NCBI RefSeq assembly: GCF_016863275.1 | Contig: NZ_BOOO01000034.1 | Coordinates: 1-64,000 of the forward strand | Direction of reading: 5' to 3' | Length of the DNA stretch: 64,000 nt | DNA from: Planotetraspora mira | GTDB lineage: Bacteria > Actinomycetota > Actinomycetes > Streptosporangiales > Streptosporangiaceae | Part shown: in pieces, positions 23,049 through 36,394 of the stretch | How the letters are laid out: each line of letters starts with the position of its first letter | Numbering within the stretch: position 1 is the stretch's first letter | Notes under the pieces: generated by a model | The model's input: only the letters and a program-made list of their open reading frames with translations | Databases searched by the model: none | What the model was told of the DNA's origin: nothing | Translations under genes and position numbers: made by a program

Positions 23049-24227
23049 ATGACGCTGGAGGTCGACGGCAGGGAAGTGAAGATCACCAATCCTGACCGGG
23101 TGGTCTTCCCACAGACCGGGCACACCAAGCGGGACCTCATCGCCTACTACCAGGTCGTCGCCGAGGGCGCGCTCCGCGGCGTCGCCGACCGGCCGGTGAT
23201 CCTCAAACGCTTCGTTCACGGCACCGACCAGGCGGCCTTCTTCCAGAAGCGGGCGCCGTCCAAACGGCCGGCCTGGATCGAGGTCGTCGAGCTGAGCTAC
23301 CCCTCGGGCCGCACGGCCGACGAGGTGGTCATGCGCGACCTCGCCCACCTCCTGTGGACGGTCAACCTCGGATGCGTCGACCTCAACCCGCACCCGGTCC
23401 GCGCCGGGGACCTCGACCATCCCGACGAGCTCAGGATCGACCTCGACCCGGTGCCGGGGATCGAATGGGAGCAGATCGTCAGGATCGCCCTCGTCGCCAG
23501 GGACGTGCTGGAGGAGCACGGCCTGACCGCCTGGCCCAAGACGTCCGGCTCCCGTGGTTTCCACGTCTACGCCGCCATCGAGCCCCGCTGGAAATTCCGC
23601 GACGTACGGCGGGCCGCAGAGGCCGTCGCCCGCGAGGTGGAGCGCCGGGCGCCCGGCATCGCCACGAGCCGGTGGTGGAAGGAGGAGCGCCAGGGCGTCT
23701 TCGTCGACTTCAACCAGAACGCGCGGGACAGGACCGTGGCCTCGGCCTACTCCGTCCGCCCCACGGGGCTGGTCTCCACACCGCTCGGGTGGGACGAGGT
23801 CGAGGGGTGCCGCCCGGAGGAGTTCACCATGGCGACGGTGCCCGACAGGTACGGCGAGGCCGGAGACCCGTGGGCGGGCATGGAGCAGACCGCCGGCTCG
23901 CTCGAACATCTCCTGGAGCTCGCCGACGCCCAGGAGCCGCGGCCGGCGGCGCCCAAGGGCACGGGACGCCGTGTGCCGGTGATGCCGCTGATCGAGATCG
24001 CCCGGGCGGAGACCAGGGACGAGGCGATGGCCGGCTTCGAACGCTGGAAGGCCAGGCACCCCGAGGCCGCGGAACGGCTCGAACCCGCCGACGTCCTGGT
24101 CGACTCGATGCGCGGGAGCAGCACCAACTGGACGCGGATCCGGGTGAACCTGCAGCACGTCCCCGAGGACGAGCGGCCCGGCCAGGAACCCCTCGAAGTC
24201 GACTACGACCCGTGGCGCGGCCGGTAG
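23049..24227 (+). CDS. NHEJ polymerase/primase domain protein (LigD POL type)
   Basis: A 392-residue archaeo-eukaryotic-primase-fold polymerase, equal to the POL module of LigD but without ligase or phosphoesterase modules. The metal site is RIDLDP with Asp131 and Asp133, and the third carboxylate is Asp220 in GVFVDFNQN. TSGSRGFHVY (165-174) binds the nucleotide, and the N-terminal ITNPDRVVFPQTG block is typical. It would extend or fill DNA ends during double-strand-break repair. Ku and an ATP-dependent ligase are not in the window, so it must work with unlinked partners. Its last 25 bases overlap the end of the convergent GMC gene. Confidence 0.93.
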   Translation: MTLEVDGREVKITNPDRVVFPQTGHTKRDLIAYYQVVAEGALRGVADRPVILKRFVHGTDQAAFFQKRAPSKRPAWIEVVELSYPSGRTADEVVMRDLAHLLWTVNLGCVDLNPHPVRAGDLDHPDELRIDLDPVPGIEWEQIVRIALVARDVLEEHGLTAWPKTSGSRGFHVYAAIEPRWKFRDVRRAAEAVAREVERRAPGIATSRWWKEERQGVFVDFNQNARDRTVASAYSVRPTGLVSTPLGWDEVEGCRPEEFTMATVPDRYGEAGDPWAGMEQTAGSLEHLLELADAQEPRPAAPKGTGRRVPVMPLIEIARAETRDEAMAGFERWKARHPEAAERLEPADVLVDSMRGSSTNWTRIRVNLQHVPEDERPGQEPLEVDYDPWRGR

Positions 24228-26539
24228 ATCTCCCACAGCTCGCCGAGGAAGAACCCGCAGAAGCGGGCGAGCGAGGAGGGCCCGTCGGGGCCGGCCGTAC
24301 GGAACGTCGTCAGCATCTTGACCAGGTCGGTGGGCAGGATGTGCAGCGTGCCCGCGGCGATGGCCTTGGCGTCGTCGTCCGCGCCCTCCTCGACGTGACC
24401 CTCCAGCAGCCGGGCGTACAGCGTGGAGGTGTCCAGCCACAACCGGGTGGGCGGTCCGTGGTGGACGTCCTTCCACCCCGCGAGAGTGCGCGGCCGGTTC
24501 TCCGAGTCCCAGAAATGCAGCCGGTAGCGCATCTCCCTGCGGTCGGGCGAGTCCCCGGGCACGAACAGGTTGAACCAGCCGCTGGTGACGGGACGGCGGC
24601 CCCCGCACATCTCGGCCTCGATCCACCCTTCGGCTCTGGCCTGGTGCTCCGGCTCGGTGAGGAAGCGCTGCACGTCGTCGGCCGTGATGGTGAGGCGGAA
24701 CATGAACTGGCCCGCCTCGGACGTGCCCATCCGCGAGTGCGGATCGGACCTGCCCACCGCGAGGGACCCGCGCATCTCCTCGACGAACCAGAGCGACGTC
24801 GGGTCGCCGGGGGAGCCCGCGTCCCATGCGGGCACGGCCGCCTTCGCCCGCGGGACCTCCAGGGCGGCGGTCCGCCGGTTCTCGAGGATCCGCGTCGACA
24901 TGCGGTCGGACAGGGCGGCGATCGTGAGCGCCGGGTTGGCGCCGACCGGGCCCGGCATGGCCGCGCCGTCCGCGATGTAGAGCCCGGGGTGGCCGAAGAC
25001 CTCACCGTAGGCGTCACAGACGCCCTCACCGGGATGGCGCCCCATGGGGGCGCCGCCGAGCGGGTGGACGGTCATGACGCGCTTGCGCCGCCACGACGGG
25101 CTGTCGGCGTATTCGGCGCCCAGCACGTCGCTGATCCGCCGCATCGTCGACCGCACCCGGTCGAAGTACTCCTCGCTCGTCTCGGCCGTCCAGACCACGT
25201 CGAGACGGCCGTCGCGCAGCCGGAGCTCCCCGTCGGGCACGTCCCGGCCCATCCCGAGAAGCGGCAGCGAACTCCCGGACAGCTCGCCGGGGCCGATGAG
25301 CCCGGCGATCTCGGCGGACAGGTTGGTGTCGTGGGTCACGATGCCGCGCAGCCGCTCCAGCAGGAACCGGGCCGCCCTGCCGAGCTCGCTTCCCACGTTG
25401 GCGCCCTCGACCAGGAAGTCGACGAACGACGGGTAGCCGCCGTCCTCGATGTAGGCCCCCCGGCCCTCGTCGCCGTCGGCCAGCCGGATGGCGCTCGTGA
25501 TGACCGGGCCGCGGCTCGCGTTGATCGGCCTGGTCCTGGTCCGGTCCTTGGCGCGGAGCAGGAACGACAGCATGTCGCCGTTGCCGGAGTACCGGGTGCC
25601 CAGCGCCTCGCTCAGACGGGGGAACCTCGCCCGGTTCTTCAGCAGCAGCGAGGTCGTCCCGTACGTGCCGGCGGCCAGGACGAGGCGGTCGCAGCTGATC
25701 GTGTGCGGGCCGGTCCACCGTTCCCGCCGCGGCCGGTCCTCGTTCTCCGCGCGCGGCATGTGCTCGACGTAGTCGACGTCGTATCCGCCGCCGACGCTGG
25801 GCCTGATGGCCCGCACCTCGTGGAGGGTGCGCAGGTCCGCGCCGTTGCGGCGGGCGGCGGCCAGGTAGGTGTGGTCGAGACTGTTCTTCGCTCCGTCGTT
25901 GCACCCGATGTCGCACTCCCCGCACAACCGGCACGTACGGCGCGGCACCCCGTGCGCGTTGCCGTACACGGGGTCGACGATCGGCAGCCCGAGCCCGGGC
26001 TCCGCACCCGGTGAGGGGGCGAAGCTGACGGCGAGGGGCGGCAGCCGCCAGTCGAGCCCCAGTTCCGCGGCGGCGTCCCGCATCGCCAGCGTCTTCAGCG
26101 TGTCGTCGTAACCCGGGTGCCCCAGCGGGTACGGCGTCGCGCCGATCATGCGCTCGACCACGTCGTAGTGGGGGTCGAGGTCGGCCCGGGTCACCGGCCA
26201 GGACTCGTGGCCGCCGCCGGGGAGGGGCTCGTCCCGGACGAACCAGCTCTCCTCCTTGCGCAGCAGCACGTTCGCGTAGATGAGCGAGCCGCCGCCGAGC
26301 CCGCTGGAAACCACCGAGTCGCAGTCGCGGAAGCTCCACACGTCGAACAGGCCGTGCAGGCCCTCACTCGGGTCCCAGAAGGCCTGCCCCAGCTCCGAGG
26401 GGCTGCGCGGGAACGAGCCCGGCGGGTACGGCCTGCCGCGCTCGAGCACCACCACGGACAGCCCCGCCTCGGCGAGCCGGTAGGCCGCCACCGCGCCGCC
26501 GAACCCCGAGCCGACCACAACCGCGTCGACGTGTTCCAT
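24203..26539 (-). CDS. GMC oxidoreductase, cholesterol-oxidase-like, with C-terminal extension
   Basis: A 778-residue FAD oxidoreductase. The dinucleotide fold begins VVVGSGFGGAVAAYRLAEAG. A glycine-rich SGLGGGSLIYANVL follows, and a Cys cluster CRLCGECDIGC (about residues 203-213) precedes NSLDHTYL, as in actinobacterial cholesterol-oxidase-like proteins. The active-site His region is VHPLGGAPMGRHP. About 200 further residues after the GMC fold (from about 580) are not part of the minimal enzyme and include an EMRGSLAVG block. It lies 49 bp downstream of the alpha/beta hydrolase and LAL regulator on the same strand. A sterol or other bulky alcohol is a plausible substrate but is unproven. 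Confidence 0.88.
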   Translation of the reverse strand: MEHVDAVVVGSGFGGAVAAYRLAEAGLSVVVLERGRPYPPGSFPRSPSELGQAFWDPSEGLHGLFDVWSFRDCDSVVSSGLGGGSLIYANVLLRKEESWFVRDEPLPGGGHESWPVTRADLDPHYDVVERMIGATPYPLGHPGYDDTLKTLAMRDAAAELGLDWRLPPLAVSFAPSPGAEPGLGLPIVDPVYGNAHGVPRRTCRLCGECDIGCNDGAKNSLDHTYLAAARRNGADLRTLHEVRAIRPSVGGGYDVDYVEHMPRAENEDRPRRERWTGPHTISCDRLVLAAGTYGTTSLLLKNRARFPRLSEALGTRYSGNGDMLSFLLRAKDRTRTRPINASRGPVITSAIRLADGDEGRGAYIEDGGYPSFVDFLVEGANVGSELGRAARFLLERLRGIVTHDTNLSAEIAGLIGPGELSGSSLPLLGMGRDVPDGELRLRDGRLDVVWTAETSEEYFDRVRSTMRRISDVLGAEYADSPSWRRKRVMTVHPLGGAPMGRHPGEGVCDAYGEVFGHPGLYIADGAAMPGPVGANPALTIAALSDRMSTRILENRRTAALEVPRAKAAVPAWDAGSPGDPTSLWFVEEMRGSLAVGRSDPHSRMGTSEAGQFMFRLTITADDVQRFLTEPEHQARAEGWIEAEMCGGRRPVTSGWFNLFVPGDSPDRREMRYRLHFWDSENRPRTLAGWKDVHHGPPTRLWLDTSTLYARLLEGHVEEGADDDAKAIAAGTLHILPTDLVKMLTTFRTAGPDGPSSLARFCGFFLGELWEIYRPRHGS

Positions 26540-26588
26540 CTCTTTCGCTTTCCGTGTCGCCCCGTGAGTCCGAGTGGCCCGTGCCGGT

Positions 26589-27704
26589 CTAGTGCCGCTT
26601 GATGAAGTCGAGGATGTGCGGGAACACGTCCAGGTGCGCGTCCTTGCCGATCAGCGTGTCGATGTGCCCGTAGCCGGGGACGACCCGCAGTTCGTGCCGT
26701 CCGGGCGCGGCCTTGGACAACCTTTCGTGGCACACGATGTTGGAGTCGGTGAAGACGTCGTTGTGGTCGCCGGTCATGAACAGGATCGGCGTCGTCACGT
26801 CGGCCGCCGCCGCCAGGTAGTCCTCCGGCAGGTCGTCGTGACGGTGATCCCCGGGGTCGAACCTGACCGCCTGCCCGGCGGCCACCATCTTGTGGACGTG
26901 CCGGTAGTAGTGGAGGTCGCACGCGCCGTTGAGGTCGGCGAGGCGCTCGTGCAGGTGGGTCTCCGGCCGCAGGTTGCCGTGGCGGTACATCGCGGGTTTG
27001 CCGCTGCCCCACATGAAGCTCTGCATGTGGCAGGCCGGCTCACGGCACTCGGGGTGGAGGAGCGAGACCGCCCGGGCCAGCAGCCACCTGCGGGTGAGCG
27101 GCGGGGCGTCCTTGAACCGCGGATCGAGGTAGGAAAGGCCCGTGCCGTACTCCATCAGCACGGGCCCGGCGGACAGCTTCACCCTGGACCACCGGTGCAC
27201 GCGCGGCGTCAGCGCCACGCTGTTGGCGACCAGGCTCGCGATCCCGTCGACCGCGCCGGCGAACAGGCTCATGCTGAACGACAACGACCCGAGGCAGTGT
27301 GCGACCACGTGTATCCGCCGCGCCCCCACGTGGCGGCGGAGTTCACGTAGCGCTGCCGGGTAATCGAAATGGGCGATGTCGTCCAGCGTGTGCCTTCGAG
27401 TCTCGACGTTGTACGGGAACCGGTTGCTCATCCGGAAGTCCAGTGCCCATACGTCGCCGAAACCGTTCTCGTGCAGGAACCCGACCAGATTGGTGTGCTC
27501 CGGCATGATGAACATGTCACTCGACGAGGTCAGGCCATGGATGAGCAGGACCACGTCGTCCGGCGTCCCCTCCGGCGCCGGACCTCCGCCCCGGCGGAAC
27601 CGGGTCAGCGTCAGCCCCAACTCATCCTCGGTGGCGAACGGATGGACCGACACCTCGGCGTCCCGCACGCCGTCAAGCGTGAACCGGGGAATTCGGTGTT
27701 CCAT
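26589..27704 (-). CDS. Alpha/beta hydrolase with a Cys at the nucleophile elbow
   Basis: A 371-residue alpha/beta hydrolase. The oxyanion strand is LLIHGLTSSSDMF. The nucleophile elbow reads VVAHCLGS, putting Cys137 where serine normally stands, as in PHA synthases and dienelactone hydrolase. The acid is likely Asp in TGDHNDVF, and the base is His in PGYGHID. A cap region (about 165-280) contains a HPECREPACHMQSFMWG stretch. The ATG at 27704 with AAGGAGG upstream is preferred to the longer frame. It lies 86 bp after the LAL regulator and 49 bp before the GMC enzyme, so the trio probably forms a unit. An acyl or lactone substrate linked to the GMC product is an inference. Confidence 0.86.
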   Translation of the reverse strand: MEHRIPRFTLDGVRDAEVSVHPFATEDELGLTLTRFRRGGGPAPEGTPDDVVLLIHGLTSSSDMFIMPEHTNLVGFLHENGFGDVWALDFRMSNRFPYNVETRRHTLDDIAHFDYPAALRELRRHVGARRIHVVAHCLGSLSFSMSLFAGAVDGIASLVANSVALTPRVHRWSRVKLSAGPVLMEYGTGLSYLDPRFKDAPPLTRRWLLARAVSLLHPECREPACHMQSFMWGSGKPAMYRHGNLRPETHLHERLADLNGACDLHYYRHVHKMVAAGQAVRFDPGDHRHDDLPEDYLAAAADVTTPILFMTGDHNDVFTDSNIVCHERLSKAAPGRHELRVVPGYGHIDTLIGKDAHLDVFPHILDFIKRH

Positions 27705-27790
27705 CTGATCGTCCTCCTTGGCCCACGGCAACGATCCCAATCCGGCCATGGCCGGCGGCATCGTGGAAAACCCGTACTCGTGGTGAAACG

Positions 27791-30700
27791 TCAGTGACGC
27801 CGGTTCAGTGCCGTGGCCACGCCCACCCGGGACGACACGTCGAGCTTGGTGAAGATGCGGGACAGATGGGTCTCGATCGTCCGCACGCTGAGGAACAGCC
27901 GCTGAGCGATCTGCTGGTTCGTGAGCCCGTCCGCGACCAGGCGCGCGACCTCGAACTCCCTCGGCGACAGCCCGAGATCCCCGGCGTCCCGGCCGGCGCC
28001 GGACGCGCTCGCCGCGCCGCTCACGCGGACGCCGAGGCGGCGCAGCTCACGGTCGGTCTGCGCCTTGAGACCCCGCGCCCCGCACGCGTCGAACGCGGAG
28101 GCGGCCGACCTGAGGCTGTCGCGTGCCGCGCTCTTGTCGCCGGCCTCCATATGGGCGAGCCCGGCCGTCAGCAGGGCCCGGCCGGCGTCGAGGTCGCGCT
28201 GTCCCTCCGACAGGAGGCGGGCCGCCTCCTCCGCGGCGGCCGCCGCGGCCGCCGGATCCTTGTCCCGTAACGCGTGGGCCCGGGCCAGGGGGACGATCCC
28301 GGACGACGCGGCCAGCCCCCGATCCTCGAGCTGTGCCGCGCGCGCCGCCCACGCCATCGACTCGGCCTCGTCGCCGCGGGACGCCGCGACCCGCGCCAGC
28401 ACCTCGCACGACGAGGTCAGCGTCACCCGGTCGAGCCGCGGGGACTCGAACCGGTCGCACGCGTCGAGCACGGCCTCGACGCCCTCCTCCAGGCGGCCGG
28501 CGTTGATCAGCGCCTGTCCTCGGGCGTAGCGGGCCTGGGCTCCCCACACCTCGCCGCCTCCGACGCCGCGCTGCACGGCCTCGTTCCCGGCGAGCAGGGC
28601 GGCGTCGTCGTCACCCGCCCACGAGGCGGCCAGGCAGACCTGGGTGAGCGCGAAGACGAGCTGCTGTCCCGAGTCGAGCAGCCGGGCGCCCTCCACGGAC
28701 TCCTCGGCGGTGGTCATGGCATCGGCCAGCCGCCCCATCATCACGAGCGTCTTGGCCCGTCCGGCGAGCAGGTTGGTCAGGATGTAGCTCTGGCCGGTCG
28801 CGCGGGCCACCTCCGCCGCCCGGTCGAAGTGGCGCAGCGCGTCGCCGTACCGGCCGAGGTTGATCTCGGCCCAGCACAGCCAGGCGATGGCGTCGAGCCA
28901 CTCCGCGAGATGGTCGTCGGGCACGGAGCCGAGGAGGCGGTCGGCCGCCTGGGCGTACCCGATCGCGTCGGCGGCGCGGCCCGCCGCGTAGGCCGGCATC
29001 GGCCGGAGCGCCGCCACCGCAACGGCGAGCCCGGGCTCCCAGTCCTCGGCCGCGTCCGGCATCAGGTCGAGCACGGCCTGGGCGGCGCGGAAGTCGACGC
29101 GCATGAGGCTCTCGGCGACCAGCCGCATGCGCAGCGGCACCGCGGCGGCCGACCGCGGGTTGGGCATGCGGCTCAGCTCGTCGAGGAGCAGGGCGCGGGC
29201 CTCCTGCGGGCGGTCGAGCTGGCGTTCCATGAGCGCGCAGACCCGTGCGGCCCGGCCCCGGCGGGAGTAGTCGTCGCCGGGGAGCAGCCGCAGCAGCTCG
29301 CGCGCGGTGTCACGGCCCTCGGCCAGCCTTCCGCTGACGCCCTGCGCCCAGCTCAGCTCCATCAGCAGGGCCAGGCGGTCCTCGCGCGTCGTGTGATCGT
29401 CCGGCATGAGCCGCAGCGCGGCCTGCAGCCAGTGGGCCGACGTGGCGGGCGCCTGCGCGATCACGGTGCGGGCGGCCGCGAGCAGGACGCCGACGGCCTT
29501 GTGGTCCCCGAAGGAACCGGAATGCTGCACGTGGTGGGCCTGGACGGTGGACGGCGCGCCCAGCTCCGCCAGGTGGGCGGCGATCCTCGCGTGGGCGCCC
29601 ACGCGCCAGCCGGCCGCGGCCGACTCGTAGGCGGCCCAGCGGACGAGGGGATGCCTGAACCGGAAACGCCCGCCGCGGGTCCTGACGATGTCCCGCTCCA
29701 CGAGTTCGTCGATGGCGGCCAGCGCCGTGGCCTGCGCCACCTCGGCCGCCACGGCGGCGATCGCCGGCTCGAACTCGTCCGCCGCCACCGCGGCCGCCTG
29801 CGCGACCCGCAGCGCGTCGGGGGACAGGACGCCGAGCTCGACCTGGAGCATGGCCAGAACGGTGGGCGGCAGCTCCCCGATCTCCGTCTGGTCCATCCGC
29901 GCCAGCGCCTCGAGGTAGAACGGGTTGCCCCCGCTGGCGTCGTACAGGGCTCTGCCCCGGCTGCGGGCGACCTCGGGGCCGAGGAACTGCTCGACCTCCG
30001 CCTGGCTGAGCGGGCCGACCGTGACCTCGTGGCCGCGCTGTCCCGCCGCCGCGACGAGCGTGGCCAGCCGCGGCGGGGCCTGCGCCGGGCGGTAGGCCAC
30101 CGCCACCAGCACGGGACCGTTCGGCGGGTGCCGGACGACGTGGTCGAGGAACTCCATGGAGCTCTCGTCGGCCCAGTGGACGTCGTCGAGGATGAGGACG
30201 AGCCCCTTGGATCCGGCCAGCGCGTCGATCATCTGGCGCAGGGCGCGGTAGAGCCGGTAGCGGGCCAGCCCGCTGCGGTCGTCGGCGATGGTCTCCCCGG
30301 TGTCCTGCGCGGCCAGCGCCGGGAACACCCCGGCCAGCATGGCGGCCTGCGCGGCTCCCACGGTCTCGACCACGTCAGAACGGTGGGTGTCGATGTGGTC
30401 GTCGAGCGCGTCCACCAGCGCGCTGTACGGCATGACCTGCTCGTACTCGGCGGCCCTACCCCACAGCGTGGTGAACCCCCGCTCGGCGGCCATGGTCATC
30501 AGTTCGGAGAGCAGCCGCGTCTTGCCCGCTCCCGGATCGCCCGCCAACGTCAGGAACCGGAAGCCGTCGCCGATGTTCAGCGCGCTCCGCAACATGTCCA
30601 GCGCGTCGTGCCGTCCGACCAGAGGCCCTGCCGGAGCGCCTGGCGCAGGCGTGGGAGAGCCGGTCACGGCCGGCGAGGTCGTACGACCGTCCATTCCCAC
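27791..30700 (-). CDS. LAL-type LuxR regulator with AAA ATPase domain
   Basis: A 969-residue MalT-like regulator. The Walker A motif is GDPGAGKT (54-61), and Walker B lies in GLVLILDDVHWADE. The middle (about 350-880) is helical repeats of TPR character, and the C-terminal 65 residues are a LuxR helix-turn-helix with LSPREFEVARLVADGLTNQQIAQRL-like sequence. These large activators sense a ligand with ATP and switch on nearby operons. The start may be the GTG at 30700 or the ATG at 30694; neither has a clear ribosome site. It is followed on the same strand by the hydrolase and GMC genes and is the natural candidate to control them. Confidence 0.93.
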   Translation of the reverse strand: MGMDGRTTSPAVTGSPTPAPGAPAGPLVGRHDALDMLRSALNIGDGFRFLTLAGDPGAGKTRLLSELMTMAAERGFTTLWGRAAEYEQVMPYSALVDALDDHIDTHRSDVVETVGAAQAAMLAGVFPALAAQDTGETIADDRSGLARYRLYRALRQMIDALAGSKGLVLILDDVHWADESSMEFLDHVVRHPPNGPVLVAVAYRPAQAPPRLATLVAAAGQRGHEVTVGPLSQAEVEQFLGPEVARSRGRALYDASGGNPFYLEALARMDQTEIGELPPTVLAMLQVELGVLSPDALRVAQAAAVAADEFEPAIAAVAAEVAQATALAAIDELVERDIVRTRGGRFRFRHPLVRWAAYESAAAGWRVGAHARIAAHLAELGAPSTVQAHHVQHSGSFGDHKAVGVLLAAARTVIAQAPATSAHWLQAALRLMPDDHTTREDRLALLMELSWAQGVSGRLAEGRDTARELLRLLPGDDYSRRGRAARVCALMERQLDRPQEARALLLDELSRMPNPRSAAAVPLRMRLVAESLMRVDFRAAQAVLDLMPDAAEDWEPGLAVAVAALRPMPAYAAGRAADAIGYAQAADRLLGSVPDDHLAEWLDAIAWLCWAEINLGRYGDALRHFDRAAEVARATGQSYILTNLLAGRAKTLVMMGRLADAMTTAEESVEGARLLDSGQQLVFALTQVCLAASWAGDDDAALLAGNEAVQRGVGGGEVWGAQARYARGQALINAGRLEEGVEAVLDACDRFESPRLDRVTLTSSCEVLARVAASRGDEAESMAWAARAAQLEDRGLAASSGIVPLARAHALRDKDPAAAAAAAEEAARLLSEGQRDLDAGRALLTAGLAHMEAGDKSAARDSLRSAASAFDACGARGLKAQTDRELRRLGVRVSGAASASGAGRDAGDLGLSPREFEVARLVADGLTNQQIAQRLFLSVRTIETHLSRIFTKLDVSSRVGVATALNRRH

Positions 30701-30975
30701 CCCACAGCGATGCGGAGACGCCCGAGGTCCCGCTCGCTCGCGCCGACATTCCTCAGTAAACGCACTTTACAGATCATGCTCCCCCCACACCGGACACACA
30801 ACGTCATTAACCCCCTATGGAAATTATTCGAAAAGAAACCGGTCAGTTCCCCCGTTTCCGGGGTCAGCGTTGCACAGCCGGGTACGAGCAGCCTCGTTCG
30901 CGCAGGTAGTCGGAGCCGTGTTGGACCCGCTGTTGGAGCCATGTCGGAGCTGTCGCGTGACCGCGGAGGTGCCAG
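30701..30975. other. AT-richer divergent regulatory region
   Basis: A 275-bp spacer separates the divergent LAL and molybdopterin oxidoreductase genes. It is clearly richer in A and T than its surroundings, particularly 30750-30850. An imperfect inverted repeat GAAACCGG / CCCGTTTC lies near 30835-30862. Both promoters should be here, but I cannot assign boxes with confidence. Confidence 0.5.
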
Positions 30976-33180
30976 GTGCCGGAGCCGATCGCCGACCACG
31001 GAGGCAGGCGCACGCCGTACGGACCTCCGGGTGGGGTGGAACGGCTCGCCGCGGCACTGCCGGGACGACTGCGCGACGCGCTTCCCGCCGAGATCGGCGT
31101 CGGCAGCCCCTGGCCGGTGCGGGTGGACACCTACCTGGACGAGGGCGTCACCGAGGCCGACGTCGACGTCTGGGTCCAGAACGTCTCCGCCGTCCAGTCC
31201 AGTGGCGACGCGCTCGACATCGCGGTCAGGGACGGCAGGATCGTGGGCGTGCGCGGGCGCGGGGTGGACCGCGTCAACCACGGCCGGATCGATCCCCGGG
31301 ACCGGCACGGGCCGTCCACGGCGGGCGACGGCACCCGGCTGACCCGCCCGATGATCAGGGAGGACGGCCGCCTGGTCGAGTGCGACTGGGACACGGCCAT
31401 GGGCAGGATCGCCGGCCGGTCGAAGGAACTGCTCGAGGCCCCCGGAGGCTGGGGCCGCCTCGGCTTCTACACCGGCGGCCGGCTGCTCCTCGAAGAGCAC
31501 TACACGCTCGCGGTGATCGCCAAGGCCGGGATCGCCACACCCCATGTCGACGGCAGCACGCGCGTCGGCGACGCGACGGCGGCCGCCGCCCTCACCGCGA
31601 GCTTCGGCGCGGACGGGCAGCCCGGCTCCTACACCGACGTGGACCACTGCGACGCGATCGCGTTGTGGGGGCAGGACATGGCCGAGTCCCGGGTGGTGTG
31701 GGAGCGGATGCTCGACCGCCGCCTGGGGCCGCGCCCGCCCGCCATGATCGCCGTGGATCCGCAGGAGACGCAGGTGGCCAAGGAGGCCGACGTCCACCTG
31801 CCCGTCCGCTCCGGCACGAACGTGGCGCTGATGAACGCGCTGCTCCACGAGTTGATCGCCGGCAACCGCTACGACGCCGCGTACGTGGCCAGGCACACGC
31901 TCGGCTTCGCCGAACTCTGCCGGGTCGTCGAGGCGTACCCGCCCAAGCGGGCGGCCGAGATCTGCGCCGTCCCCGCGGCACTGATCGAGCAGGCCGCCGA
32001 GATCCTCGGCTCGTGCGAGCGCCTGGTGTCGACCGTCCTGCCGGGCTTCTACCGGTCCAACCAGGCGACGGCGGCGGCCTGCCAGGTCAACAACCTCCAC
32101 CTGCTGCGCGGGATGCTCGGACGCCCGGGCGCGGGCCTGTTCCAGATGACGGGCCGGCCGGCCGGGCAGCACGCGCGGGAGACGGGTGCGAGCGGCGAAC
32201 TCCCGGGGATGCGCAACTGGGAGAACCCGGACCACGTGCGGGAACTCGCCGAGTTGTGGAACGTCGATCTCGCGGCCATCCCGCACTGGGGGCCGCCGAC
32301 GCACGCCATGCAGATCTTCCGCTACGCCGAGCAGGGCTCGATCCGGCTGCTGTGGATCTCCGCCGCCGACCCGGTGGTCTCGTTGCCCCACGCCGACCGG
32401 GTCAGCAAGGTTCTCGGGAGCGAGGAGTTGTTCCTCGTCGTCCAGGACCTCTACCTGACCGAGACCGCCCGGCTGGCCGACGTGGTCCTGCCCGCCGCGG
32501 GCTGGGGCGAGAAGCCGGGCACCGTCACCGGCGCCGACCGGACGGTCCACCTCTGCGAGCGGGCCGTGGAACCGCCGGGGGAGGCCCGGGCCGACCTGGA
32601 CATCTTCCTCGACTACGCCCGCCGGATGGGCTTCCGCGACAGGGACGGCGCACCCCTCATCGGCTGGCACGACGCCGAGTCGGCGTTCGAGGCGTGGAAG
32701 GCCTGCTCGAAAGGGCGCCCGTGCGACTGCACCGGCATCACCTACGACCGGCTGCGCGGGGGCAGCGGCGTCCAGTGGCCGTGCACCCCCTCGACGGGAC
32801 ACGGCGCCGAGCGCCTGTACGCGGGCGGGCGGTTCGCCACCGACCCCGGCGTCTGCCAGAGCTTCGGGCACGATCTCGCGACGGGCGCCGAGTGGGGCGC
32901 GGAGTGCTACTGCGCGAAGGAGCCCCACGGGCGCGCCTTCCTCCACGCCGCGCACTACGAGCCCTCGTCCGAGGCGATCGGAGACGGGCGCCCGTTGTAC
33001 TGGGACCCCGTGTCCAAACAGCCGATATACAGCGTGGCGACATACAGCGTGGCGACGGTGCCGGTGACGCTCGACGCCGTCCCGGACACTGAGACGACCG
33101 AGGTCGGCGGAGCGGGAGGAGGTGCTGAGGCGGACGGCGTCGTGCCTGTTGAGGTCTCCCAACGGCTAGAGGAGGTATGA
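30976..33180 (+). CDS. Molybdopterin oxidoreductase homologue lacking Fe-S and Mo cysteine ligands
   Basis: A 734-residue protein that aligns along its length with actinobacterial nitrate-reductase/formate-dehydrogenase-like molybdopterin enzymes. Recognisable blocks are WPVRVD, GRIVGVRGRGVDRVNHGR, LTRPMIREDGRLVECDWDTAM, GADGQPGSYTD and VVLPAAGWGEKPGT. Where family members carry C-x2-C-x3-C for the 4Fe-4S cluster, this protein has Ser71, Gln74 and Asp78. The fourth ligand region reads RIDPRD. The loop that usually supplies the Mo-binding Cys (RLC-type) reads TRVGDA with Gly198. The cofactor-binding body seems intact, so it may bind bis-MGD without an Fe-S relay, or be non-redox. The GTG start has GGAGG six bases upstream. 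A tandem 15-bp duplication lies near its 3' end. It is followed after 3 bp by a small helical gene. Confidence 0.85.
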   Translation: MPEPIADHGGRRTPYGPPGGVERLAAALPGRLRDALPAEIGVGSPWPVRVDTYLDEGVTEADVDVWVQNVSAVQSSGDALDIAVRDGRIVGVRGRGVDRVNHGRIDPRDRHGPSTAGDGTRLTRPMIREDGRLVECDWDTAMGRIAGRSKELLEAPGGWGRLGFYTGGRLLLEEHYTLAVIAKAGIATPHVDGSTRVGDATAAAALTASFGADGQPGSYTDVDHCDAIALWGQDMAESRVVWERMLDRRLGPRPPAMIAVDPQETQVAKEADVHLPVRSGTNVALMNALLHELIAGNRYDAAYVARHTLGFAELCRVVEAYPPKRAAEICAVPAALIEQAAEILGSCERLVSTVLPGFYRSNQATAAACQVNNLHLLRGMLGRPGAGLFQMTGRPAGQHARETGASGELPGMRNWENPDHVRELAELWNVDLAAIPHWGPPTHAMQIFRYAEQGSIRLLWISAADPVVSLPHADRVSKVLGSEELFLVVQDLYLTETARLADVVLPAAGWGEKPGTVTGADRTVHLCERAVEPPGEARADLDIFLDYARRMGFRDRDGAPLIGWHDAESAFEAWKACSKGRPCDCTGITYDRLRGGSGVQWPCTPSTGHGAERLYAGGRFATDPGVCQSFGHDLATGAEWGAECYCAKEPHGRAFLHAAHYEPSSEAIGDGRPLYWDPVSKQPIYSVATYSVATVPVTLDAVPDTETTEVGGAGGGAEADGVVPVEVSQRLEEV
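33027..33056. repeat. In-frame 15-bp tandem duplication
   Basis: ATACAGCGTGGCGAC occurs twice in succession (33027-33041 and 33042-33056), giving the peptide YSVATYSVAT in the C-terminal tail of the molybdopterin protein. The perfect identity suggests a recent event. Confidence 0.9.
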
Positions 33181-33183
33181 GCG

Positions 33184-33648
33184 ATGCACCTCGCCCACTA
33201 CCTGCGACTGCTCCACCGGTCCCAGACCGCGCTGGCGGAGGCGTTCCGCGAGATCAGGCGTGGCCACCCCCACGAACCCGACATGTACGGCGTCTGCGAG
33301 CGCCTGGCCGTACAGTGCCGTGACCAGGCCAGATGGCTGGAACCTTTCGTCCGGCGCTACGAGCCGTGGACGTCGCCGTCCCCGGAGCCGGAACGGCTGC
33401 ACCAGCCGCTGTTCGCGGGGACCAGACCCGGAGGGCTCGGGTTGCTGCGCGACCTGCACGACCTCTATCTCCTGGCCACCGAGTGCGACATCGCCTGCGC
33501 GATGATCGCGCAGGGCGCGCAGGGAGCCCGCGACGACGAGTTGCTCGACGTGGTCCGCCGCTGCGGAGGCGAACTCGCCGTGCAGTTGTTGTGGTTGCGC
33601 ACCCGGATGCGGCACGCCGCCCCGCAGGCACTGGTCGTCGCCTACTGA
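33184..33648 (+). CDS. Uncharacterised helical protein paired with the molybdopterin gene
   Basis: A 154-residue soluble protein predicted almost wholly helical, with His/Glu-rich helices (MHLAHYLRLLHRSQTALAEAF; EPDMYGVCERLAVQC) suggestive of a four-helix bundle. Four cysteines and many histidines could bind metal, but no full ferritin-type EExxH pair is present. It begins 3 bp after the molybdopterin gene, so it is surely co-translated, and it is probably an accessory, chaperone or electron partner. I do not recognise a named family. An AGGAGG inside the end of the upstream gene serves as its ribosome site. Confidence 0.8.
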   Translation: MHLAHYLRLLHRSQTALAEAFREIRRGHPHEPDMYGVCERLAVQCRDQARWLEPFVRRYEPWTSPSPEPERLHQPLFAGTRPGGLGLLRDLHDLYLLATECDIACAMIAQGAQGARDDELLDVVRRCGGELAVQLLWLRTRMRHAAPQALVVAY

Positions 33649-35732: not shown

Positions 35733-35842
35733 GTTGTCACGAGATGAATCATTCGCGACGCTCCGCTAACTCTAGCGGACTCGGCGGCGTCCCGGCGCCA
35801 CGCGGGGGCGCCATCGCCGTCGATCGGATGGAAGATGGTGCC

Positions 35843-36394
35843 ATGGCCCATTCGGACACCCATTCGCACGAACACGAAGCGGACGCGGCCTGTGCCGTGG
35901 CGCACGGGGAAGCGGCGCCCCCGAACGGTGACCGCACCCTCGTGGCCGTGTTCGCGTCCCCTGTCGCCGGCTACCTGTTGCGTTTCGGCGCCGACCTCGG
36001 GTTCCGGGGGATCCTCCTGGAGCCCGACCCCGGCCTCGCCGTGAAGGTGAGGGCGGAGGAGCCGGCGTTCGAGGTGACGAGCGGTCTGCCCGCCGATCTG
36101 GACGGCGCCGCTGACGTGGTGGTCACCGATCACCACCGCCCCGAACTCGGCACCGTGCTGCGCGACCTGCTCGCCGCCAAGAGCCGATGGATCGGAGTGA
36201 TGGGCAAGCCGTACCATCCGGCGCCGCACGAGGTCGCGCTGGCCGGACTCGGGGTGCCGGCCGAGGAGATCGCCCGCGTCCACCGGCCGATCGGGCTCAA
36301 CATCGGCTCCCGCACCCCGCCGGAGATCGCCGTCTCCACGCTGGCCGGCCTGATCGCCGACCGCAACGGACGGCCGGGCGGTTTCACGTTCTGA
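35843..36394 (+). CDS. XdhC-like NAD-binding protein (Rossmann half)
   Basis: A 183-residue protein. A His/Glu/Asp-rich N-terminus (HSDTHSHEHEAD) precedes a Rossmann segment (LVAVFASPVAGYLLRFGADLGFRG). The C-terminal block RVHRPIGLNIGSRTPPEIAVS is the hallmark of the XdhC C-terminal domain. XdhC proteins load sulfurated Mo-cofactor onto xanthine-dehydrogenase-type enzymes, but the N-terminal XdhC domain with its CGG motif is missing, so this is a half-size member. Start ATG 35843 is chosen over the longer frame, which runs towards the tRNA region. The molybdopterin gene lies 3 kb upstream, but no direct link is shown. Confidence 0.8.
   Translation: MAHSDTHSHEHEADAACAVAHGEAAPPNGDRTLVAVFASPVAGYLLRFGADLGFRGILLEPDPGLAVKVRAEEPAFEVTSGLPADLDGAADVVVTDHHRPELGTVLRDLLAAKSRWIGVMGKPYHPAPHEVALAGLGVPAEEIARVHRPIGLNIGSRTPPEIAVSTLAGLIADRNGRPGGFTF

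What the first reader, a model, noticed from the sequence alone, without database searches (positions are those of the whole stretch)
30976..33180. Molybdopterin oxidoreductase homologue without Fe-S or Mo cysteine ligands
The C-x2-C-x3-C positions hold Ser71, Gln74 and Asp78, the fourth-ligand region reads RIDPRD, and the loop that normally supplies the Mo-binding Cys reads TRVGDA. The rest of the fold seems conserved and under selection. The protein either binds the cofactor without an Fe-S relay, with Asp199 or water on Mo, or has a new non-redox role. Its small helical partner gene follows at 3 bp.
Basis: partly seen in the sequence, partly recalled or inferred. Interest (0 to 1): 0.75.

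Follow-up and report, generated by a model that had tools for sequence, protein, structure and literature searches.

The report
Molybdenum enzyme relative that lost cofactors
A soil bacterium's protein descended from a molybdenum enzyme appears to have lost the parts that hold its metal cofactors, yet it and its small partner are still preserved by selection, so it probably works as a structural or regulatory protein rather than as a redox enzyme.

Summary
Confirmed: the 734-residue MopB protein at 30976-33180 (+) has Ser71/Gln74/Asp78 at the Fe-S triad, Asp106 at the fourth ligand and Gly198 at the Mo-cysteine. Of 99 distinct sequences, 24 keep triad and Mo-Cys (grade A); 54 lost the triad but keep domain IV and, in 53, the Mo-Cys (grade B); 21 form clade C (Planotetraspora, Microbispora, unnamed kin), where the domain-IV motif is gone in 21 of 21 and the Mo-Cys position reads G, W, S, Q, D, gap or (4 rows) C. 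That scatter argues against a replacement ligand such as Asp199. dN/dS stays within the grade-B range, and a ferritin-fold partner gene was detected in 107 of 110 family loci, fused in 5. Best reading: a cofactor-free MopB pseudoenzyme, large subunit of a two-protein complex, acting by protein contact or ligand binding. Cofactor-less MopB proteins are known (NuoG, QrcB, ActB, FhcB); this looks like another, graded loss. What it does is unknown.

The parts
30976..33180 (+). mopB-like gene, 734 aa, MopB (DMSO reductase superfamily) protein without cofactor ligands
   Evidence: PF00384 148 bits, no PF01568, PF04879 below cut-off; AF2 pLDDT 85.5, pTM 0.88; Foldseek best NapA 2jio E 9.2e-43
30965..30969 (+). 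Shine-Dalgarno-like GGAGG, 6 nt before the GTG start
   Evidence: read; function inferred
31186..31209 (+). residues 71-78: former C-x2-C-x3-C, now S71, Q74, D78
   Evidence: alignment to L102
31285..31302 (+). residues 104-109 RIDPRD: fourth-ligand position D106 and the Lys position R108
   Evidence: Lys in 78 of 78 rows outside clade C, 0 of 21 inside
31480..31482 (+). R169, replaces a Gln found in all rows outside clade C
   Evidence: R in 32 of 32 clade-C rows, Q in 79 of 79 others
31558..31575 (+). residues 195-200 TRVGDA: former Mo-Cys loop, G198 at the Cys position
32368..32370 (+). D465, replaces the Asn of the TNP motif
   Evidence: D in 32 of 32 clade-C rows, N in 79 of 79 others
32554..32556 (+). 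C527, cysteine gained in clade C
   Evidence: C in 31 of 32 clade-C rows, in 1 of 79 others
32974..33006 (+). residues 667-677 AIGDGRPLYWD: junction where about 100 residues of domain IV (PF01568) are missing
   Evidence: same junction in L039-L042
33169..33176 (+). GAGGAGGT, Shine-Dalgarno-like site for the partner inside the mopB 3' end (codes the EEV tail)
   Evidence: translational coupling inferred
33184..33648 (+). partner gene, 154 aa, predicted four-helix bundle of ferritin-like fold
   Evidence: AF2 pLDDT 89.3; Foldseek best E 6.5e-3, none at E<=0.001; YciE 3ogh_B TM 0.75; detected in 107 of 110 family loci, fused in 5
27794..30700 (-). LuxR/LAL-type regulator, divergent from mopB; linkage only, membership in the system not shown
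   Evidence: PF13191 and PF00196; beside mopB in 13 of 16 named clade-C loci and 0 of 64 other named loci

Best explanation
The gene encodes a cofactor-free pseudoenzyme of the MopB (DMSO reductase) superfamily, the large subunit of a constant two-protein complex whose small subunit is the ferritin-fold protein encoded 3 bp downstream. In descent the Fe-S triad went first (grade B), then, at the base of clade C, domain IV and the cofactor loops, after which the Mo-Cys position was free to drift. It should bind neither a 4Fe-4S cluster nor bis-MGD. It probably works as a scaffold or regulator for its partner, or by holding another ligand in the remodelled cleft. Shown: ligand losses, domain-IV deletion, purifying selection, conserved gene pair and fusions. 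Inferred: absence of cofactor binding, physical complex, non-redox role.
For: Ligand residues absent. PF01568 absent here and in L042, present in the four grade A and B relatives scanned (L059, L078, L098, L102), weaker in L043 and L049. The five PF01568 places in the genome lie in other MopB ORFs of 680-940 aa. The domain-IV motif changes once on the tree, the Mo residue at least 8 times over the 99 rows. Conserved core positions lost in clade C (kept in 4 or fewer of 21 rows) lie within 6 residues after a model strand in 13 of 15 cases, against 33 of 127 for the rest, Fisher p 7e-6; the six settings tried gave p 1.7e-7 to 6.6e-5 (post hoc). dN/dS among six Planotetraspora sequences is 0.11-0.32 for mopB and 0-0.25 for the partner; four grade-B sets span 0.10-0.53. 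242 of 612 columns are invariant over 32 clade-C rows. Every genome listed with a match has one at E<=1e-100, the five same-genus genomes included. Partner in 107 of 110 loci, fused in 5.
Against: No biochemical or expression data. Four of 21 clade-C rows keep a Cys at the Mo position (L022, L043, L056, L113), as does L125, so the loss is not uniform. L049 (Microbispora) keeps a PF01568 match of 43 bits, above the cut-off, and L043 one of 69 bits. Cofactor contacts were not measured on coordinates. dN/dS is by simple counting and, in clade C, higher than in the Mycobacterium grade-B (0.10-0.16) and Arthrobacter grade-A (0.11-0.14) sets, so some relaxation or slow decay is not excluded.
Confidence: 0.74

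Rival explanations
1. Decaying gene: function was lost in an ancestor and the ORFs persist by slow decay.
For: Domain IV is deleted in five Planotetraspora sequences and degenerate in the Microbispora rows; the Mo position drifts; the C-terminal tail evolves fast (dN/dS 0.44-0.58); clade-C dN/dS is above that of some intact sets (Mycobacterium 0.10-0.16, Arthrobacter 0.11-0.14).
Against: Frames are open in the six Planotetraspora sequences, and no stop is reported inside any clade-C match listed. dN/dS of 0.17-0.33 in the two genera lies within the grade-B range. The partner is strongly conserved. 242 of 612 columns are invariant in clade C.
Confidence: 0.1
2. A still active Mo/W enzyme with a non-cysteine or solvent ligand and no Fe-S cluster.
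For: Fold conserved; the AioA/IdrA lineage lacks an amino-acid ligand for the metal (PMC10100899, passages); the genome holds other MopB enzymes.
Against: Domain IV missing; strand-loop positions lost; no common replacement at the Mo position.
Confidence: 0.06
3. Repurposed cleft: the vacated cofactor site now binds another small ligand or does new chemistry, using the fixed residues R169 and D465 (and D234, C527).
For: R169 and D465 in 32 of 32 clade-C rows, C527 in 31 of 32, against 0, 0 and 1 of 79 others; N234D in 19 of 21 and in 11 of 11 further clade-C loci.
Against: Changes on one stem branch are shared by descent anyway; their positions in space were not measured.
Confidence: 0.1

Closest known systems
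FhcB (formyltransferase/hydrolase complex subunit B)
   Same: Cytoplasmic MopB homologue listed as lacking Mo/W-bisPGD and serving as scaffold for other subunits (PMC10100899 table, passages)
   Different: Related to FwdB; partners FhcA and FhcD. P0001 scores 38 of a 328-bit cut-off on the FwdB-type model TIGR03129; one small helical partner here
QrcB and ActB
   Same: [quoted passage not shown] PMC10100899 passages)
   Different: Subunits of respiratory complexes with Fe-S and membrane subunits; none was seen beside this pair. QrcB model 66 of 440 bits
NuoG/Nqo3
   Same: MopB fold, no bisPGD (PMC10100899 table, passages)
   Different: Complex I; a separate NuoG exists in this genome (L008). 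NuoG model 81 of 470 bits for P0001
NapA / NasC / formate dehydrogenase alpha
   Same: Closest folds and sequences: 2jio, 1fdi, F420-FDH 7bkb; Fdh-alpha 321 bits
   Different: All under the curated cut-offs (Fdh-alpha 666, NasC 1100); cofactor ligands missing
Grade A/B relatives (labelled 'nitrate reductase' in 12 of the 15 plasmid records listed)
   Same: Same family, 50-70% identity, same partner gene
   Different: Keep domain IV and (77 of 78) the Mo-Cys; their function is itself untested; the four scanned score below the NasC and Fdh-alpha cut-offs

Membership tests
MopB (DMSO reductase) superfamily | PF00384 core / MopB fold | tested here: met
   148 bits against cut-off 24; Foldseek NapA, FDH
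Catalytic Mo/W-bisPGD enzyme | Mo/W ligand residue (Cys, Sec, Ser or Asp; none in AioA) | tested here: not met
   G198; clade position variable
Catalytic Mo/W-bisPGD enzyme | C-terminal dinucleotide-binding domain PF01568 | tested here: not met
   no hit in P0001 and none at its place in the genome
Catalytic Mo/W-bisPGD enzyme | bound Mo/W and pterin | not testable with these tools
   needs purified protein
Fe-S containing MopB | C-x2-C-x3-C and fourth Cys | tested here: not met
   S71/Q74/D78 and D106; PF04879 12.2 of 22.7 bits
Assimilatory nitrate reductase NasC | curated NCBIfam score | tested here: not met
   290 of 1100 bits
Formate dehydrogenase alpha | curated NCBIfam score | tested here: not met
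   321 of 666 bits
NuoG | curated NCBIfam score | tested here: not met
   81 of 470 bits
QrcB | curated NCBIfam score | tested here: not met
   66 of 440 bits
Cofactor-less MopB proteins (as a kind) | MopB fold with cofactor-binding features absent | tested here: met
   at sequence and model level only
Ferritin-like proteins (partner) | four-helix bundle of ferritin type | tested here: inconclusive
   four-helix bundle predicted; nearest solved folds are ferritins and YciE but no match at E<=0.001, best 6.5e-3
Ferritin-like proteins (partner) | di-iron ligands (E, ExxH, E, ExxH; recalled) | tested here: not met
   no such conserved set seen by eye in the alignments

The most novel reading that the evidence does not exclude
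Clade C is a MopB protein whose empty bis-MGD cleft has been rebuilt, with fixed R169, D465, D234 and C527, into a new binding or catalytic site controlled by the ferritin-fold subunit: a molybdoenzyme scaffold turned into a metal-free enzyme or sensor, with the intermediate states still alive in relatives.
Probability: 0.17. Interest if true: 0.78.

Novelty: new variant of a known kind. Interest (0 to 1): 0.57.

Why it matters
The cofactor-less MopB proteins named in the passages read (NuoG/Nqo3, QrcB, ActB, FhcB) belong to larger established complexes (partly recalled), so the steps of their cofactor loss are hard to see. Here one family with one constant partner gene shows the steps side by side: triad and Mo-Cys present; triad lost with Mo-Cys kept; both, and domain IV, lost, under continuing selection. 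That makes 'what is left for a molybdoenzyme to do without molybdenum' testable by comparing three grades of one two-gene unit. It also warns that relatives labelled 'nitrate reductase' (12 of 15 listed plasmid records) score far below the NasC cut-off where scanned.

Tried and rejected
Domain IV encoded elsewhere in the genome: rejected; the five PF01568 places lie in other MopB ORFs of 680-940 aa (a search with the domain of L059 gave the same ORFs and weak hits, best outside them E 0.02). An intact paralogue of the same family in the genome: none seen (next hit 28% identity). Substitute cysteines at the ligand sites: none. A metal site in the partner: no ferritin-type ligand set seen by eye. 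Function from neighbours: in an ORF clustering of the 80 named loci the largest cluster without mopB or partner spans 12 loci (the simple ORF picker misses some genes). A GMC oxidoreductase, alpha/beta hydrolase and LuxR block is linked in 13 of 16 named clade-C loci but not beside L048, L056 and L113, so it was not taken as part of the system; some of the 64 other loci are short contigs. Single versus double Fe-S loss: the free tree needs two changes, but a tree with the 75 triad-less rows held together is 1.99 log units better (p-AU 0.597); the quick tree leaves this open. Docking of the partner could not be examined: no coordinates were available.

Literature: the searches listed no paper whose title or abstract start names this family; listings were capped (20 of 141 shown, 8 of 98), and only open-licence PMC papers are held. 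Passages were read in PMC10100899 and PMC6303296; every other paper was seen only in a listing.

Rows dropped before counts: 110 sequences (window plus 109 loci) were reduced to 99 by removing those identical over residues 61-600 of the trimmed sequence; part of the print was cut, but classifies all 99. The 110 loci include genes fetched twice through two tools, and the profile used there was built from 43 of these partner sequences. Alignment A1 for the structure job used 72 of the 98 distinct relatives plus P0001. add 12 loci (11 clade C, 1 grade B).

Full report
What is there. The window comes from an assembly (9.03 Mb, 100 contigs) whose closest named relatives are Planotetraspora. The ORF at 30976-33180 codes a 734-residue protein with a MopB core (PF00384, 148 bits), a below-cut-off Fe4S4 match (12.2 of 22.7 bits) and no PF01568. 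Its best solved relatives are periplasmic nitrate reductase, FdhF of the hydrogen-dependent CO2 reductase, F420-type formate dehydrogenase and formate dehydrogenase H. The AlphaFold2 model is good (pLDDT 85.5, pTM 0.88), with low confidence at residues 686-723. In samples of related genomes the family is patchy: 33 of 150 genomes of the same family and 78 of 297 of the same order at E<=1e-100.

The observation. Aligned with a relative that has the motif, the triad positions hold Ser71, Gln74 and Asp78, the fourth position Asp106, the Lys position Arg108 and the Mo-Cys position Gly198. The deletion is shared by L039-L042, which come from separate assemblies; a further Planotetraspora sequence, L043, keeps a degenerate domain IV (69 bits) and the Mo-Cys. 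The genome's five PF01568 places all lie in other MopB ORFs. Three of these ORFs pass a curated model: formate dehydrogenase alpha (L002), FdhF/YdeP (L006) and actinobacterial formate dehydrogenase (L009); L004 passes none and L003 had none at the limit used. So the organism very likely still makes the cofactor; the cofactor genes themselves were not searched.

Three grades. Of 99 distinct family sequences, 24 have the C-x2-C-x3-C triad with the Mo-Cys and domain IV (grade A; Hymenobacter, proteobacteria, Arthrobacter and others, by record titles). In all 24 the usual fourth Cys is Gly. Fifty-four lack the triad, 42 of them as S/H/D, but keep domain IV, and 53 of these keep the Mo-Cys (grade B; L077 has Gly). 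Twenty-one form clade C, with SH-aLRT 100 in a quick tree (no bootstrap) from which the six ligand columns were left out. In clade C the Mo position reads G 11, C 4, S 2, W 1, Q 1, D 1 and gap 1, the Lys after the Fe-S region is never kept, and the HFHTRTKTGR motif is gone in 21 of 21. Eleven more clade-C loci show the same pattern, one of them (L125) with a Cys at the Mo position. On the tree the domain-IV motif changes once, while the Mo residue changes at least eight times over all 99 rows. The simplest order is Fe-S triad first, then domain IV and the cofactor loops, then drift of the Mo-Cys. One or two Fe-S losses cannot be told apart: the free tree counts two, but a tree with all triad-less rows together fits slightly better.

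Where the losses fall. Of 228 columns at least 97% conserved outside clade C, 24 of 40 in domain IV and 28 of 161 in the core are kept in 10 or fewer of 21 clade-C rows. Within residues 121-545, conserved positions kept in 4 or fewer clade-C rows lie within six residues after a strand of the model in 13 of 15 cases, against 33 of 127 for the others (Fisher p 7e-6; six settings tried, p 1.7e-7 to 6.6e-5). Loops after strands are where such folds hold their cofactor (general knowledge). This test was made after seeing the list and uses no cofactor coordinates. Two changes are uniform: Gln169 to Arg and Asn465 to Asp, each in 32 of 32 clade-C rows and 0 of 79 others; Cys527 is gained in 31 of 32. 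They may form a salt bridge across the emptied cleft or a new site; this is inference, and shared descent alone could explain them.

Not a dead gene. The six Planotetraspora frames are open. Pairwise dN/dS over 15 pairs is 0.11-0.32 for mopB and 0-0.25 for the partner. By genus sets, clade C gives 0.17-0.32 (Planotetraspora) and 0.20-0.33 (Microbispora); grade B gives 0.26-0.53 (Planobispora), 0.19-0.34 and 0.16-0.25 (two Streptomyces sets) and 0.10-0.16 (Mycobacterium); grade A gives 0.11-0.14 (Arthrobacter) and 0.07-0.25 (Hymenobacter). Clade C is thus within the grade-B range but above the lowest sets, so some relaxation is possible. The C-terminal tail evolves fastest (0.44-0.58), though its last codons also carry the partner's Shine-Dalgarno-like site. 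242 of 612 columns are invariant over 32 clade-C rows. Each genome listed with a match has one at E<=1e-100.

The partner. The 154-residue product of 33184-33648 is predicted as a four-helix bundle (pLDDT 89.3). Its nearest solved folds are ferritins and YciE, but with weak E-values (best 6.5e-3, none at 0.001; YciE chain 3ogh_B TM 0.75). Pfam gives no hit for it, and weak DUF2383 matches for 14 of 43 relatives. A profile built from 43 of these partners finds it in 107 of 110 family loci (genes fetched twice included): 5 fused to the MopB C-terminus (L098, L105, L108, L109, L110), 101 within 150 bases downstream on the same strand, and 1 oddly placed (L062); L095, L097 and L099 gave none. Gene fusion and constant adjacency across phyla argue for a physical complex. 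In the ORF clustering no other gene spans more than 12 of the 80 named loci.

Mechanism. The best-supported account is a cofactor-free large subunit kept for its contact with the partner. What the complex does is not known, because the function of the cofactor-bearing relatives is itself unknown: four scanned relatives fall under the NasC and formate dehydrogenase cut-offs, although 12 of 15 listed plasmid records carry the label 'nitrate reductase' (24 records matched). The linked LuxR, hydrolase and GMC oxidoreductase block (13 of 16 named clade-C loci, 0 of 64 others) is a lead to the regulon, not evidence of function.

Known precedents. [quoted passage not shown] QrcB and ActB are called cofactor-less in PMC6303296 (passages). 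P0001 is not a member of the NuoG or QrcB families by curated score. The kind is known; this instance, its graded relatives and its partner did not appear in the listings of the searches made (open-licence PMC only, listings capped).

Noticed in passing
L098, L101, L102, L105 and 20 other grade-A loci: All 24 grade-A rows have C-x2-C-x3-C but Gly at the usual fourth Cys; a 3Fe-4S cluster or a non-Cys ligand is possible.
   Followed up: partly
grade-B loci such as L044, L054, L078, L080: A large, mostly actinobacterial group lost the Fe-S triad (42 of 54 read S/H/D) but keeps the Mo-Cys (53 of 54) and domain IV: candidate Fe-S-free, Cys-ligated Mo enzymes.
   Followed up: partly
window 35744-36391 (+): XdhC-type Rossmann domain (PF13478, 80.5 bits), a Mo-cofactor-related family (recalled), 2.1 kb downstream of the partner; among the named loci found only in L041 and, cut at the locus end, L042.
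   Followed up: partly
window 24209-30700 (-): GMC oxidoreductase, alpha/beta hydrolase and LuxR regulator block, conserved beside mopB in 13 of 16 named clade-C loci.
   Followed up: partly
L077: A grade-B relative from an Actinomycetales MAG has Gly at the Mo-Cys position and HFQTRTRTGR in domain IV: a possible independent start of cofactor loss.
   Followed up: no
L047, L049, L051-L053, L055, L071: Microbispora partner genes match the window partner in two separated pieces, with extra sequence between them.
   Followed up: no
L005/L009 (own genome, contig C24): The formate dehydrogenase paralogue has one in-frame TGA and matches the actinobacterial formate dehydrogenase model after it; possibly a selenocysteine codon.
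   Followed up: no
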